Assembly: GCA_947494975.1 (NCBI GenBank)
Contig: CANLXA010000002.1
Coordinates: 620,001 to 684,000, forward strand
Direction of reading: 5' to 3'
Length of the DNA stretch: 64,000 nt
Origin: an uncultured Roseicyclus sp.
GTDB taxonomy: Bacteria > Pseudomonadota > Alphaproteobacteria > Rhodobacterales > Rhodobacteraceae
Part shown: positions 2,991 through 6,723 of the stretch, piece by piece
Layout: every line of letters begins with the position of its first letter
Position numbering within the stretch: position 1 is the stretch's first letter
Notes under the pieces: model-generated
Seen by the model: only the letters and a program-made list of their open reading frames with translations
Database searches by the model: none
Told to the model about the DNA's origin: nothing
Position numbers and translations under genes: made by a program

Positions 2991-3812
2991 CTACCCCTCC
3001 AGCCCCTCGAACCAGTCCAGCGCCATATCCGCCCATCCCCGTGGCACCGCATGGCCGCCCGGAAACAGCGCGAACTGCAACGAGCCGGCCGCGCAGGACG
3101 ACCAGATCCGGTGCCAGTAATGGCCCTCATTCGTGATCTCATCCGGGGCAGAGCGCGCGCAGCCATTGGTCTCGCGCCAGATCTCCATCGACGCAAACAC
3201 ATCGCCCTGCCGCACCGCGCCATCGCGGAACACGCGGCCTTCGATGGGCACGGTGCCATCCGCCCACCCATGGGTATGCAGCACATCGACGGGCCCCTCA
3301 CAGCCGTCCAGGGCCGGGTGTGGCCGCCAGAAGGCCCCGGCCACCGGCGCATAGGCGCGCGCGATGCCGGGATCGGCGCAGGCGAGATAGGATACCATGG
3401 ATCCGCCAATCGAGAACCCGCCGATCATCACCGCGTCCCGGTCGATCCCGTGCACCTCCGCCGCATGGCTCAGCACCTCCTCGAAAAACGCCGCCTCGTC
3501 CCGCACGGGCGCAAATTCCGGGTGGAACGACCATGTCGACCCAAATCGCGACCCCTCCCGCTGCAACCCCTGCGGGCCGATCACCGCATAGCCGCGCGCC
3601 GTCATCGCGTCGGCCAGCATGTTCACCATGCCTTCGCCGCGCCCGCCCGCGCCGTGCAGCATCATTACGGCGGGGTAGGGGCCGTCGCCCTCGGGCAGCG
3701 CGATATGGTAATCGCCCATCGGCACCTCGCAGGCGCCCTCAACGCCCGCGCAGGCGGCCCATCCGGGGCTGGCGCTGGCCAATAATGCGGCAGCGGTCAG
3801 GGAAACGCGCAT
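2991..3812 (-). CDS. Exported esterase of the polyhydroxybutyrate depolymerase (LpqC) type
   Basis: Alpha/beta hydrolase of 273 residues with an N-terminal signal peptide (MRVSLTAAALLASASPGWA, cut before ACAG). The oxyanion region reads MMLHGAGGRGEG and the nucleophile elbow is GGFSIGGS; a GH near the C-terminus (FPGGHAVP) supplies the likely catalytic His. This pattern belongs to the LpqC/PHB-depolymerase-like and feruloyl-esterase-like hydrolases; the substrate cannot be read from sequence. The frame is open 21 codons further upstream, but the Met at 3812 gives a clean signal peptide. It is the last gene of the minus-strand run that begins at 5862, 26 bp after the rhodanese gene. Confidence 0.75.
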   Translation of the reverse strand: MRVSLTAAALLASASPGWAACAGVEGACEVPMGDYHIALPEGDGPYPAVMMLHGAGGRGEGMVNMLADAMTARGYAVIGPQGLQREGSRFGSTWSFHPEFAPVRDEAAFFEEVLSHAAEVHGIDRDAVMIGGFSIGGSMVSYLACADPGIARAYAPVAGAFWRPHPALDGCEGPVDVLHTHGWADGTVPIEGRVFRDGAVRQGDVFASMEIWRETNGCARSAPDEITNEGHYWHRIWSSCAAGSLQFALFPGGHAVPRGWADMALDWFEGLEG

Positions 3813-3838
3813 ATTCAAAATCCTTGCAAAGTAATCTG

Positions 3839-4297
3839 TTACGTCCGGTCCACCGGCAGGCCCGCGCGCACCCAACCGGGCCCGGCCGCGGAGCCAAGCA
3901 TACCTTCGGGCACGTCGATGATGTTGGTGAACCCGGCCTCGATCAGCCGGTTGGTCAGCCGAGAGGAGCGCACGCCGCGGGCGCAGATCAAGGCCACGCG
4001 CGCATCCTGTGTCCCACCCGTCAGCTCCAGCAGCGCCTCGGTGAAATCCTCCCGCCGCATATCAAGGCGATGGCCCGAGGCGGGCGAGCCGCTGGCCGCC
4101 CATTCATCGGGCCTGCGGATGTCGATCAGCAGGATCTCACCGGCCTCCGCCATCCGGTGCGCCTCCTCCACGGAAATCTGCTGATCCACGTTTTCCGACA
4201 GGGCCGAGTAGAACAGGTTCTGCCCACCAGTCGCCGCGAAGCCCGCACCAACCAGAACCAGCGCGCCCGCGCCGATCAAAAACCGTCTGCGATCCAT
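3839..4297 (-). CDS. Exported single-domain rhodanese-like protein
   Basis: 152 residues. The N-terminus MDRRRFLIGAGALVLVGAGF has an RRRFL run before a hydrophobic stretch, which resembles a Tat signal or an uncleaved membrane anchor. The rhodanese domain covers about residues 40-145, with VDQQISVEEAHRMAEAGEIL, LIDIRRPDEW and the active-site loop CARGVRSSRL containing the catalytic Cys. The family moves sulfane sulfur or acts as a thiol carrier. It starts three bases after the SCO gene, so it is co-translated with it. Its link to the two Cys-rich proteins suggests periplasmic sulfur or redox chemistry, which is inference. Confidence 0.85.
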   Translation of the reverse strand: MDRRRFLIGAGALVLVGAGFAATGGQNLFYSALSENVDQQISVEEAHRMAEAGEILLIDIRRPDEWAASGSPASGHRLDMRREDFTEALLELTGGTQDARVALICARGVRSSRLTNRLIEAGFTNIIDVPEGMLGSAAGPGWVRAGLPVDRT

Positions 4298-4300
4298 GGG

Positions 4301-4852
4301 TCAGCTGGCCTCCAGATACCCGGTCACGATCTCGGCCATCATTTCCGGGCCCAGAACCGGTGGCAGCAATGTCAGAACGTCCCCTTCGCCATTCAGCAGG
4401 TAAATGAACGAGCCGTGGGAGAAGACCGTGCCATAGAACGGATCCACGAAAAGCTCCTCGAATTCCACGGAATAGGCGTCATATGCCACTTGTAACGCGG
4501 CCTCGCTTCCAGTCAGGCCCACGAAGTCGGGGTGAAACACCTCGAGCGCCTCGGCCATCGCCTCCGGCGTGTCCCGCACGGGGTCGACGGTGATCATGAC
4601 CGGGCGCAACTGCCCGCCCGCCTCCTCGACGATCTCGACGGTGGTGGCCATCAACGGCAAGGCGGCGGAGCAGATTTCCTGGCAATTGGCATAGCCGAAG
4701 AACACAAGCTGGTGGCGCCCGTCCGGGTCTGACTCCGTGCGTTCGCTCCCCGTATGATCGATCAGGGTAAACGCCCCGCCCAGATCATCTGTCAGGGCCT
4801 GCGCCGAAGCCATCCCGGCGCAGAGTATCAGGGCAACGGACAGTCGGATCAC
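4301..4852 (-). CDS. SCO1/SenC-family thiol/copper protein
   Basis: Exported or membrane-anchored protein of 183 residues with a thioredoxin fold. After a signal sequence (VIRLSVALILCAGMASAQA) it shows FFGYANCQEICSAALP with the SCO CxxxC pair, MITVDPVRDTPE, and the conserved His in FSHGSF; these are the three metal ligands of SCO proteins. I took the GTG at 4852 because it overlaps the upstream stop by four bases (GTGA) and gives the signal sequence; longer readings lack one. SCO proteins usually mature the CuA site of cytochrome oxidase or reduce its cysteines. Here it sits with Cys-rich exported proteins rather than with cta genes, so its client may be different. Confidence 0.88.
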   Translation of the reverse strand: MIRLSVALILCAGMASAQALTDDLGGAFTLIDHTGSERTESDPDGRHQLVFFGYANCQEICSAALPLMATTVEIVEEAGGQLRPVMITVDPVRDTPEAMAEALEVFHPDFVGLTGSEAALQVAYDAYSVEFEELFVDPFYGTVFSHGSFIYLLNGEGDVLTLLPPVLGPEMMAEIVTGYLEAS

Positions 4853-5415
4853 CGTGTGATCTCCCACGCCTCTTGCCAGCTTTCGCCGGTGCCGAGATAT
4901 CCCTCCCCCTCGATCTCGGCCAAGACGCGGGGATCGTTGCGATACCAGCGGCCTTCCTCTGCCGCCGCTTCGGGGAATTGGACCTCCCAGGCATCGGTCC
5001 AGCGGTTCGCCGTGACCCACTCTTCCTCTCCGGCCGCGCGGATCCGCTGCACGAGGTAGACATTGGTCGCGCCGACGTATTCGTCTTCGATCATCAACCC
5101 GTCGACCTCAACCTCCATACCGCAATAGGGCGCCAGATCCACGGCGGCCCCGGTGAAGATGCCCTGGTTGTTCTTGTTGGGATAGGTCAGCACACCGTCG
5201 GCGGCCCGCAGCAATCCAAGCTGCCGCCCGGTGCTGCATTCATTCGCGCAATCGCCCGCCACTTCGCACAGCATGTCGACAACCGTCGCCTCGAACCGCG
5301 CCGGCTCTTCCCAGGCCAGGTTCCAGCTTCGCGCCTCCGAGCCCTCCGAAAACGGTCCCTCCTGGGCGGCGGCGGGGGTAGCCAGAAAGGCCAGCGGGAT
5401 CAGGTACTTCCACAT
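4849..5415 (-). CDS. Exported Cys-rich protein, paralogous to the preceding gene
   Basis: 188 residues with a signal peptide (MWKYLIPLAFLATPAAAQ). I do not recognise a named family. The N-terminal half has VVDMLCEVAGDCANECSTG followed by QLGLLR, and another Cys in LAPYCGMEVEVDG. The pattern V[VI]D-x2-C...C-A-x2-C-S-x-G...GLL also occurs in the gene at 5419-5862, and both have a later beta-rich stretch of the type V-x-V-x-G...YLV, so the two probably share a fold. The C-terminal 60 residues (EEEWVTANRWTDAWEVQFP and onward) are extra and acidic. The start lies three bases after the previous stop and the end overlaps SCO by four bases, giving tight translational coupling. A metal-binding or thiol-carrier role is inference. 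Confidence 0.7.
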   Translation of the reverse strand: MWKYLIPLAFLATPAAAQEGPFSEGSEARSWNLAWEEPARFEATVVDMLCEVAGDCANECSTGRQLGLLRAADGVLTYPNKNNQGIFTGAAVDLAPYCGMEVEVDGLMIEDEYVGATNVYLVQRIRAAGEEEWVTANRWTDAWEVQFPEAAAEEGRWYRNDPRVLAEIEGEGYLGTGESWQEAWEITR

Positions 5416-5418
5416 CGC

Positions 5419-5862
5419 TCAGCCCTCCGGATTCGGTATTGCGAAGCCGGGAACAACCCCGAAATCGGTATGGTTTGTATTGGTGATGCCGTGATCCTCG
5501 ACCACTTCATCGATCACCAGATAATTCAGCCCGTCACGGGCGAAGAGCCGCCCGGACGCCGTGATGTCGTGGGAGGCCAGTTCGAGCTGTGTCTGGCCAG
5601 ACGCGTTCTGATCGTCGCCATTGATGCTCAGGATCATGTAGACGGTGCCGTCTTCTCCCAACAAGCCCACCGGGATGCCACCTGCCGAACACCAGATCGC
5701 GCAGGTATGGTGCGCCGTGCCCTGCACCGCGTCCGGCCCGCCCATCACGCCCGAGAAATAGCACCAGGTGTCGATGACCTCGCCGCGGATCGTGACCTCT
5801 TCGCCATTGGCCAGTGCTGGCCCGGCGGCGCAGATCAACGCAGCCGTGAATATGTGTTTCAT
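5419..5862 (-). CDS. Exported Cys-rich protein, first gene of the SCO/rhodanese operon
   Basis: 147 residues with a signal peptide (MKHIFTAALICAAGPALA). The mature protein begins NGEEVTIRGEVIDTWCYF and continues to HHTCAIWCSAGGIPVGLL, so it has one Cys, then a C-x3-C pair in a conserved setting. The His pair before CAIWC could also bind metal. Later segments (LELASHDITASGRL, LNYLVIDEVVEDHGI) look like an OB-type beta barrel. I know of similar uncharacterised proteobacterial proteins but no assigned function. It heads the five-gene minus-strand unit, so its promoter should lie in 5863-5991. Confidence 0.7.
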   Translation of the reverse strand: MKHIFTAALICAAGPALANGEEVTIRGEVIDTWCYFSGVMGGPDAVQGTAHHTCAIWCSAGGIPVGLLGEDGTVYMILSINGDDQNASGQTQLELASHDITASGRLFARDGLNYLVIDEVVEDHGITNTNHTDFGVVPGFAIPNPEG

Positions 5863-5991
5863 GGGGGTGCCTCCCGTTCTTTTCCCTTGCCGGAAGCGTA
5901 ACAGGCAGCGGCGAAATCACCGCATCACATTTTTGAGCGGGCGGGCAAGTTCGCCCCCGAGCGGGGCGGATTGACGGTGATCAACAGCCGA

Positions 5992-6723
5992 TCAGGGCTC
6001 GATCTCACCGCTCATGATGGCGCGGGCAACGGCCTGTTCGCGGGTTCGGGCACCAAGTTTGCGGCGCGCATTCGTGATGTAGAGGGCAACGGCGGATTCC
6101 GAGATATCAAGACGATGCGCAATCTTCGCCACCCGCAATCCCGCGCTCAGCCAGAGCATGCATTCCCTTTCGCGCGGGCTAAGCCGCCCATGGGCAGGGC
6201 GGGCCCGATGCGCCAGGGCGGTCAATCGTTCAAATGCCATCAATCCGGCCAGATGCAATTCGGCTGTGAAGGTTTCGCAAATCCTGTCGAAGGCCGGGCC
6301 ATCGGTGGTGCCGCCGATGACCCAGCCACCGAATTCCGATTGCTGTATCGTTCGAACCGGTATGCAAAGCGCGGTTTTCACGCCAAACGACCGCGTGAGT
6401 TCCAGGAACGCGCCCTGCCGTCCGTTCGTCTCCGGGAACCGATCTCCATCCGTCACGATCCCCGCGGCGGTCATGTTGCGGCAGATCAGCGACAGGAACG
6501 GATCGTCGCCGATCAACCCGCCCTCACGGTAATTGTCGCGAAATTCGTCGGGCAGGCTTGAGATGAACTGCGATGAGTGCAGGCCGGTTTCCCGTCGCGC
6601 CATGGTCAGGGTGCAAAAGGGCATCCCGCGATCTTCCGCCAGGTTGGCCATTCTGGACCAGACCGCGTCGGCGCTGGACAGGCGGGCCACGTCCTCCGAG
6701 AAGTCCTGCAATTCATGGATCAT
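5992..6723 (-). CDS. LuxR-family transcriptional regulator (no luxI nearby)
   Basis: 243 residues: an N-terminal autoinducer-binding-like domain (about 20-160) and a C-terminal GerE/LuxR helix-turn-helix (about 175-240) with LSPRERECMLWLSAGLRVAK and ISESAVALYI. In the ligand domain the conserved NY and DDP residues are visible in FRDNYREGGLIGDDPF, and FGVKTALCIPV keeps the expected Gly, while the Trp usually before the Tyr is Phe. No acyl-homoserine-lactone synthase gene lies in the window, so it is a LuxR solo here. It is divergent from the membrane-protein gene at 6844, a possible target. A short GC hairpin at 5952-5968 follows the stop but lacks a T-tract. Confidence 0.85.
   Translation of the reverse strand: MIHELQDFSEDVARLSSADAVWSRMANLAEDRGMPFCTLTMARRETGLHSSQFISSLPDEFRDNYREGGLIGDDPFLSLICRNMTAAGIVTDGDRFPETNGRQGAFLELTRSFGVKTALCIPVRTIQQSEFGGWVIGGTTDGPAFDRICETFTAELHLAGLMAFERLTALAHRARPAHGRLSPRERECMLWLSAGLRVAKIAHRLDISESAVALYITNARRKLGARTREQAVARAIMSGEIEP

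What the first reader, a model, noticed from the sequence alone, without database searches (positions are those of the whole stretch)
3839..5862. Operon with two related Cys-rich exported proteins, SCO1 and an exported rhodanese
The first two genes (5419-5862 and 4849-5415) share V[VI]D-x2-C...C-A-x2-C-S-x-G...GLL and a similar C-terminal half, so they look like paralogues in series. Both have signal peptides. The genes are coupled (3-base gap, GTGA overlap, 3-base gap). A thiol/copper SCO protein and a rhodanese with intact catalytic Cys follow. Known family roles point to copper or sulfur handling; a client pair served by SCO and rhodanese is my inference. I know of no described system with this set.
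Basis: partly seen in the sequence, partly recalled or inferred. Interest (0 to 1): 0.75.

Follow-up and report, generated by a model that had tools for sequence, protein, structure and literature searches.

The report
Exported cysteine-protein pair with SCO partner
Two small exported bacterial proteins of an undescribed, related family are encoded side by side, usually followed by a copper-handling SCO protein, and probably form a new kind of copper-dependent redox pair; the neighbouring rhodanese is a separate unit that only sometimes sits next to them.

Summary
The two exported Cys proteins (A, 5419-5862; B, 4849-5415), a SCO1/SenC protein and an exported rhodanese are coupled genes. A and B are distant paralogues: profile comparison of mature regions gives E 3.4e-6, with 0 of 50 shuffles reaching it, and both models show the same OB-like order of strands. 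Neither matches Pfam, NCBIfam or a solved structure.

A and B are adjacent in 28/28, 80/80 and 12/12 loci (the first two sets overlap); SCO follows in 27/28, 76/77 and 9/12, and one tree branch separates these SCOs from the 51 others compared. The rhodanese follows in only 11/27, 33/74 and 0/9; it belongs to a rhodanese-esterase pair of its own.

A keeps Cys34, Met40, His51, Cys54 and Cys58 in 115 of 115 copies; B keeps three Cys in 117 of 117.

Best reading (inferred): A and B are exported without a cofactor, and SCO reduces their thiols and inserts copper, giving a small periplasmic copper redox or relay protein. No metal or phenotype data exist. The listings searched showed no description of this set.

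The parts
5419..5862 (-). Gene A: exported 147-aa OB-like protein; invariant Cys34, Met40, His51, Cys54, Cys58
4849..5415 (-). Gene B: exported 188-aa OB-like paralogue with C-terminal helical extension; invariant Cys50, Cys56, Cys60 and nearly invariant Cys98
4301..4852 (-). SCO1/SenC protein (183 aa, GTG start), C-x3-C and distal His present; separated by one tree branch from the other SCOs compared
3839..4297 (-). Exported/anchored rhodanese (152 aa, RRRFLIG near the N-terminus, CARGVRS loop); co-located here, not part of the conserved module
2991..3812 (-). Alpha/beta hydrolase (over the Abhydrolase_2 cut-off; sub-cut-off similarity to short-chain PHA depolymerases); frequent partner of the rhodanese

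Best explanation
A-B-SCO is a self-contained periplasmic copper-protein module. Shown: A and B are paralogous OB-like proteins, encoded side by side in every locus counted and usually followed by SCO; A carries an invariant Cys-Met-His-Cys-Cys set, B a C-x5-C-x3-C set plus a fourth Cys; the SCO keeps C-x3-C and the distal His and is separated by one tree branch from the other SCOs compared. Inferred: A and B cross the membrane by Sec, unfolded and without cofactor, and fold as a pair. SCO, a thioredoxin-like protein that can act on thiols and bind copper, keeps their cysteines reduced and places copper in A's site (Cys34/His51/Cys54/Cys58, probably with Met40). B supplies thiols as a copper or electron relay, or stabilises A. 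The loaded pair then works as a small periplasmic electron-transfer or copper-relay protein. The rhodanese and esterase are neighbours only.
For: A-B adjacency 28/28, 80/80, 12/12; SCO next 27/28, 76/77, 9/12 (first two sets share genomes). A and B in the same 28 of 195 genomes of the order. Each of these 28 genomes has at least two SCO matches (my reading), so the operon SCO is an extra copy. Operon SCOs (63 of 112 after thinning) and other SCOs (51) lie on opposite sides of one branch, SH-aLRT 95, against a mean of 37.5 changes for shuffled labels. Invariant C34, M40, H51, C54, C58 in 115/115 A; C50, C56, C60 in 117/117 and C98 in 116/117 B; C-x3-C in 112/112 SCO. A and B are paralogous. The Cys/His/Cys/Cys core is invariant in 16 of 16 diverse A-like rows. 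A weak relative on a Phycisphaera plasmid lies within 5 kb of a four-helix copper-binding protein, a metal-sensitive regulator, DUF2946 and a Rieske protein. Sec-type export favours a metal loaded in the periplasm over an Fe-S cluster (established knowledge). Precedents: SCO genes beside the Cu enzyme genes mtoX (PMC5739008, passages) and ioxA (PMC9415286, passages).
Against: No metal was measured and no solved homologue was found. The loop with A's ligands is modelled poorly (pLDDT about 60), and ligand distances could not be read. SCO is absent next to A-B in one Rhodobacterales locus and three distant ones, so it is not strictly needed in place. The SCO tree is quick and unrooted, warns of long branches meeting, and with the midpoint root five distant operon SCOs fall on the side of the others, so a single clade of operon SCOs is not shown. 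B has no invariant His or Met, and shows no detectable similarity to the A-like domain of P0007 (6 of 50 shuffles as high). SCO could act on thiols only. The P0007-type relatives of A show no SCO among the neighbouring genes printed. The Met is missing in the Phycisphaera relative.
Confidence: 0.5

Rival explanations
1. A and B are copper chaperones, not clients: they pass copper with SCO to a conventional cuproenzyme such as the CuA site of cytochrome oxidase, much as PCuAC-type proteins do.
For: SCO family role; chaperone modules vary between species (PMC6696091, passages); small exported Cys/Met/His proteins are typical copper carriers (recalled); CutF, a small exported C-x3-C protein of Rhodobacter, is needed to mature a multicopper oxidase (PMC8456105, passages).
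Against: Only 28 of 195 genomes of the order have A-B although all 195 have SCO. No cuproenzyme is among the recurring neighbour clusters scanned (12 clusters); the rarer neighbours (234 of 576 neighbour genes fall in no cluster) were not scanned. The operon SCOs stand apart from the others compared, as expected if they have their own target.
Confidence: 0.22
2. A, B, SCO and rhodanese form a sulfane-sulfur or thiol-disulfide relay.
For: Operon linkage with an intact rhodanese in the window and near relatives; many invariant Cys; SCO can do thiol chemistry (PMC6696091, passages); by my reading, 23 of the 28 A-B genomes do have a rhodanese relative somewhere.
Against: Rhodanese is downstream in only 11/27, 33/74 and 0/9 loci and sits beside its esterase partner without A-B-SCO nearby in 15 of 19 other loci. 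Invariant His and Met in A point to metal rather than persulfide.
Confidence: 0.1
3. A-B is a structural-zinc or disulfide-stabilised periplasmic protein pair (sensor, binding protein or enzyme scaffold); SCO only keeps its thiols reduced.
For: Cys3His is a common zinc set (recalled); three distant loci have A-B without SCO next to it; three Cys of B align with those of A.
Against: SCO carries the His that distinguishes copper binders from plain thioredoxins in all 112 copies (four read by eye). Met40 is invariant in 115 of 115. Copper-linked neighbourhood of the Phycisphaera relative.
Confidence: 0.18

Closest known systems
SCO1/SenC copper chaperones (PF02630)
   Same: The third gene is a member by profile, C-x3-C and distal His.
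   Different: One tree branch separates it and its operon relatives from the 51 other SCOs compared; it travels with A-B, and no oxidase gene was seen among the recurring neighbours scanned.
mtoX-SCO1/senC-mauG operon (copper methanethiol oxidase; PMC5739008)
   Same: Operon of an exported copper protein plus its own SCO, also in marine Rhodobacterales (passages).
   Different: There the client is a ~46 kDa SBP56 enzyme with MauG; here two small OB-like proteins without Pfam match and no MauG.
iox cluster (iodide oxidase, Iodidimonas/Roseovarius; PMC9415286)
   Same: SCO genes (three of six) with a copper oxidase and proteins of unknown function (passages).
   Different: Needs a multicopper oxidase and a 71-kDa IoxC; none among the proteins scanned here, and A/B have 147 and 188 residues.
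CutF of Rhodobacter capsulatus (PMC8456105)
   Same: Small protein with a putative Sec signal and an essential C-x3-C in a copper operon (passages).
   Different: 118 aa with a proline-rich end and next to a multicopper oxidase; no such tail in A or B by eye. A and B were not aligned with CutF here.
Unnamed A-like domain in the Rieske/ferric-reductase operon (P0007 family)
   Same: Same domain: profile probability 97.9%, E 4e-13; Cys, Met, His, Cys, Cys kept in the six such rows.
   Different: Membrane-anchored, Cys-Met spacing one residue shorter, no B or SCO recognised beside it; accompanies Rieske, ferric-reductase-like and glutamate-synthase-like proteins.

Membership tests
SCO1/SenC (PF02630) | Pfam score above cut-off | tested here: met
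   136.2 against 22.8 bits
SCO1/SenC (PF02630) | C-x3-C and a distal His as copper ligands | tested here: met
   C-x3-C in 112/112 operon SCOs; His by pattern in 108, by eye in the other 4
SCO1/SenC (PF02630) | Copper binding and delivery to a client | not testable with these tools
   needs biochemistry
Rhodanese (PF00581) | Pfam score above cut-off and active-site Cys | tested here: met
   36.3 against 22.2 bits; CARGVRS
Single four-gene system A-B-SCO-rhodanese | Rhodanese stays with the other three genes | tested here: not met
   11/27, 33/74, 0/9; independent rhodanese-esterase unit
A and B as one paralogous family | Detectable homology above controls, same order of strands and helices | tested here: met
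   E 3.4e-6, 0 of 50 shuffles; matching elements. Against: B versus P0007's A-like domain not above shuffles (6 of 50)
CuA domain (cupredoxin) | Cupredoxin fold and C-x3-C-x3-H-x2-M | tested here: not met
   Model is OB-like (low confidence in the ligand loop) with no significant PDB match; A has C-x3-C but no following H-x2-M (the motif is recalled)
mtoX operon | SBP56 and MauG genes beside SCO | tested here: not met
   Not among the six proteins scanned at the locus or the two glucan genes beyond
iox cluster | Multicopper oxidase beside SCO | tested here: not met
   Same scans
Any Pfam or NCBIfam family for A or B | Match at a permissive E-value | tested here: not met
   0 families: Pfam at E <= 10 and NCBIfam at E <= 1

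The most novel reading that the evidence does not exclude
A carries a new type of biological copper site on an OB-like barrel: a Cys3-His-Met (possibly binuclear, CuA-like) centre built from C34, M40, H51, C54 and C58, assembled by a dedicated SCO with the paralogue B as obligate partner. It would be a second fold and a second client class for SCO-type copper assembly, and the parent of a wider unnamed family that also serves Rieske/ferric-reductase-like membrane systems.
Probability: 0.25. Interest if true: 0.82.

Novelty: new variant of a known kind. Interest (0 to 1): 0.55.

Why it matters
SCO proteins are known mainly as assembly factors for cytochrome oxidase, and it is still argued whether they carry copper or reduce thiols (PMC6696091, passages). 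A-B-SCO offers a soluble, three-gene system with a small presumed client, free of membrane subunits, in which that question can be tested directly. It also defines a metal-ligand-like family without a Pfam or NCBIfam model that is found across Alphaproteobacteria and, by a weak match, on a planctomycete plasmid.

Tried and rejected
Rhodanese as part of the module: rejected by linkage counts.

B as the split counterpart of the first barrel of the P0007 family (shared KN motif): tested by profile comparison; probability only 4.8%, score 21.2 against a shuffle maximum of 19.2, so not claimed.

FNR-like palindrome before A as a shared regulator site: present without mismatch in the window and its nearest relative only; the best-match distribution over 90 upstream regions is much like that of 1002 control regions.

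Pfam DUF5818 as a home for the A domain: one match at E 0.36 to the other half of P0007, none to A.

Plasmid homologues of A and B: none for the window's proteins or for a distant B; one weak A-like hit (Phycisphaera); P0007 relatives on five Rhizobium plasmids.

VIA-align library was not available. A search of Planctomycetota genomes was not possible; a search of 219 genomes of the window's own phylum with the wider A-like profile gave 6 with a match, all in its class.

Scripts gave no usable P0007 comparison (my pattern was too strict; 71 stopped with an error); only one search is used for it. The P0007 set was picked by a motif pattern, so its motif conservation is not counted; the six rows are.

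Rows dropped: the A and B sets hold gene-called copies only (A at least 130 aa, B at least 140 aa, for the loci), so loci where my caller missed or cut a gene are not in them; 12 of 15 P0007-type sequences went into.

Literature listings seen: 15 of 36 papers; 4 of 4; 10 of 27; 12 of 39; 5 of 5; 1 of 1; 10 of 45; 7 of 7. Passages read in PMC5739008, PMC6696091, PMC8456105 and PMC9415286. None of what I saw describes this gene set; most subscription papers are not in the library.

Full report
WHAT IS THERE. The window (a Rhodobacterales genome; its closest named relative in A is an uncultured Roseicyclus, 99% identity) holds on its minus strand A (5419-5862), B (4849-5415), SCO (4301-4852), a rhodanese (3839-4297) and an alpha/beta hydrolase (2991-3812), in that order, with gaps of 3, -4, 3 and 26 bases. 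A LuxR-type regulator lies 129 bases upstream; beyond the hydrolase, on the other strand, are a family-2 glycosyltransferase and MdoG of periplasmic glucan synthesis. A and B have no Pfam match at E <= 10, no NCBIfam match at E <= 1, and no convincing PDB sequence match (best E 0.064 and 0.037, to aminotransferases over short stretches; none at E <= 5 for the A profile).

ARE A AND B RELATED. BLASTP sees nothing significant. Profiles do. From 115 A and 117 B sequences (order set and named set overlap, so these are not independent species counts), trimmed to the mature part, hhalign gives probability 87.8%, E 3.4e-6, score 40.6. Of 50 column-shuffled B alignments none reached it (best 18.5), and A or B against SCO, rhodanese and esterase profiles scored 12.1-21.5. 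Against this, B and the A-like domain of the P0007 family score 16.2, reached by 6 of 50 shuffles, though that domain is clearly related to A. AlphaFold models (A: 75 sequences, mean pLDDT 74.7; B: 76 sequences, 87.2) show the same order: long strand, short helix, Cys-bearing loop, two strands, helix, two long strands; B adds C-terminal helices. Foldseek finds no significant PDB match (best E 0.039 for A, 0.31 for B), but many of the top rows are proteins with OB folds (RPA, SSB, class II tRNA synthetases; that these carry OB folds is recalled). A's ligand loop is modelled with low confidence. I had no coordinates, so the models were not superposed and ligand distances were not measured.

CONSERVATION OF LIKELY LIGANDS. 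A: C34, M40, H51, C54, C58 in 115 of 115; H52 in 114. B: C50, C56, C60 in 117 of 117; C98 in 116. SCO: C-x3-C in 112 of 112; the distal His by pattern in 108 and by eye in the other 4. In a 16-row alignment that also holds six P0007-type rows and the Phycisphaera relative, G-E-x2-D-x2-C, H-x2-C-A-x2-C and a Pro are invariant; the Met is missing only in the Phycisphaera row and is one residue closer to the Cys in the P0007 rows.

DISTRIBUTION AND LINKAGE. A and B were each sought alone and hit the same 28 of 195 genomes of the order. A profile of A found 9 of 398 genomes sampled from the phylum, all in the window's class; a profile of B found 10 of 289 in the class. A scan of named genomes gave 217 relatives of A, of which the best 80 were kept: Roseicyclus, Litoreibacter, Roseovarius, Jannaschia, Ruegeria, Tateyamaria and others. 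Six-frame counting over 28 loci of the order, 80 named loci and 12 distant alphaproteobacterial loci (5 found with A, 7 with B) gives A directly before B in 28/28, 80/80 and 12/12; SCO next in 27/28, 76/77 and 9/12 where there was room; rhodanese downstream of SCO in 11/27, 33/74 and 0/9; esterase in 9/27, 28/74 and 0/9. The first two sets share genomes (for example L066 and L181, Palleronia rufa, the locus without a recognisable SCO; there only a 30% tblastn match with E 0.1 lies at the spot). In the three distant loci without SCO, other genes follow. Beyond SCO the neighbours change from genus to genus. Around A-B in 79 of the 80 named loci (L130 had no gene call) lie 576 neighbour genes other than the five families; the commonest clusters are the glycosyltransferase (25 loci) and MdoG (22). 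Pfam scans of ten further recurring clusters gave an ABC transporter, a lysine-decarboxylase-like (LOG-type) protein, OpgC, trigger factor, a LysR regulator, an FMN reductase, chorismate synthase, an EamA transporter, NAD kinase and one without match: no cuproenzyme. The 234 neighbour genes in no cluster were not scanned.

THE RHODANESE IS A NEIGHBOUR. Rhodanese relatives at E <= 1e-20 are in 84 of 195 genomes of the order. By my reading of the rows, 23 of the 28 A-B genomes have one, but it is adjacent in only 11. Of the 30 best rhodanese loci fetched, 11 carry A-B-SCO; in the other 19 none of the three is within about 1.5 kb, and 15 of these 19 have the esterase-like gene directly after the rhodanese. 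The rhodanese-esterase pair, often beside the glucan genes, is thus a unit of its own.

THE SCO STANDS APART. All 195 genomes of the order have at least one SCO, and each of the 28 A-B genomes at least two. In a tree of 63 operon SCOs (112 thinned) and 51 other SCOs (from 50 loci: the 30 best-scoring plus chosen ones), one branch separates the two groups, SH-aLRT 95, against a mean of 37.5 changes under shuffled labels. Caveats: quick tree, unrooted (with the midpoint root five distant operon SCOs fall on the side of the others), a warning about long branches meeting, and the comparison SCOs come from Rhodobacterales only.

WIDER FAMILY. A's domain recurs as the C-terminal half of membrane-anchored proteins (P0007 type; profile probability 97.9%, E 4e-13, 12 of 15 collected sequences used) in an operon with a ferric-reductase-like Rieske protein, a Rieske/glutamate-synthase-like protein and, in the window's own genome, a Rieske-thiamine-diphosphate enzyme; these A-like proteins are in 12 of 101 genomes of the order and on five Rhizobium plasmids (a Rieske gene adjoins in the two read). 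A weak relative (31% identity, E 7e-4, found with a distant A) on plasmid pPSMK1 of Phycisphaera mikurensis lies within 5 kb of a four-helix copper-binding protein, a metal-sensitive regulator, DUF2946, DUF2231 and a Rieske protein. PMC8456105 (passages) links DUF2946 to copper homeostasis.

MECHANISM. Shown: paralogy, ligand-like invariance, linkage, a SCO group apart from the others compared; export signals by eye. From established knowledge: Sec substrates cross unfolded and usually without cofactor; SCO proteins bind copper through two Cys and a His and can act as thiol oxidoreductases (PMC6696091, passages). Inferred: SCO reduces and metallates A (and B). The pair then moves electrons or copper in the periplasm. 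I put this at 0.5; a chaperone role towards a conventional oxidase at 0.22, zinc/structural at 0.18, sulfur relay at 0.10.

NOVELTY. Operons of a copper enzyme with its own SCO are known (mtoX, PMC5739008; iox, PMC9415286). This one differs in its presumed clients, a pair of OB-like paralogues without any family model. The literature listings showed no description, within an open-access library only. Hence 'new variant of a known kind', interest 0.55.

Noticed in passing
L243:7631-13708 (window's own genome, contig C3:61631-67708): Operon joining a membrane-anchored A-like protein with a ferric-reductase/Rieske protein, a Rieske/glutamate-synthase-like protein, small membrane proteins and a Rieske-thiamine-diphosphate enzyme; the A-like member is in 12 of 101 genomes of the order and on five Rhizobium plasmids. 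Function unknown to me.
   Followed up: partly
window 2991-4297: Rhodanese plus esterase-like hydrolase is a conserved pair of its own, often beside the periplasmic glucan genes (MdoG and a family-2 glycosyltransferase).
   Followed up: partly
window 5971-5984: Perfect FNR-like palindrome TTGATCACCGTCAA between the LuxR gene and A; a mismatch-free site is shared only with the nearest relative (L121), not conserved in the family.
   Followed up: yes
window 5992-6723: LuxR-type regulator with autoinducer-binding domain directly upstream of A, same strand; labelled there in the window, L080 and L084 only among the 28 order loci.
   Followed up: no
L259:1297-12303 (Phycisphaera mikurensis plasmid pPSMK1): A-like protein with a His-rich tail in a copper-looking cluster (four-helix copper protein, metal-sensitive regulator, DUF2946, DUF2231, Rieske, TolC and RND adaptor).
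   Followed up: partly
L066:9171-9680 and L181 (Palleronia rufa): A and B without a recognisable SCO; only a weak 30% match remains at the expected place. Lost, diverged or broken gene; not pursued.
   Followed up: partly
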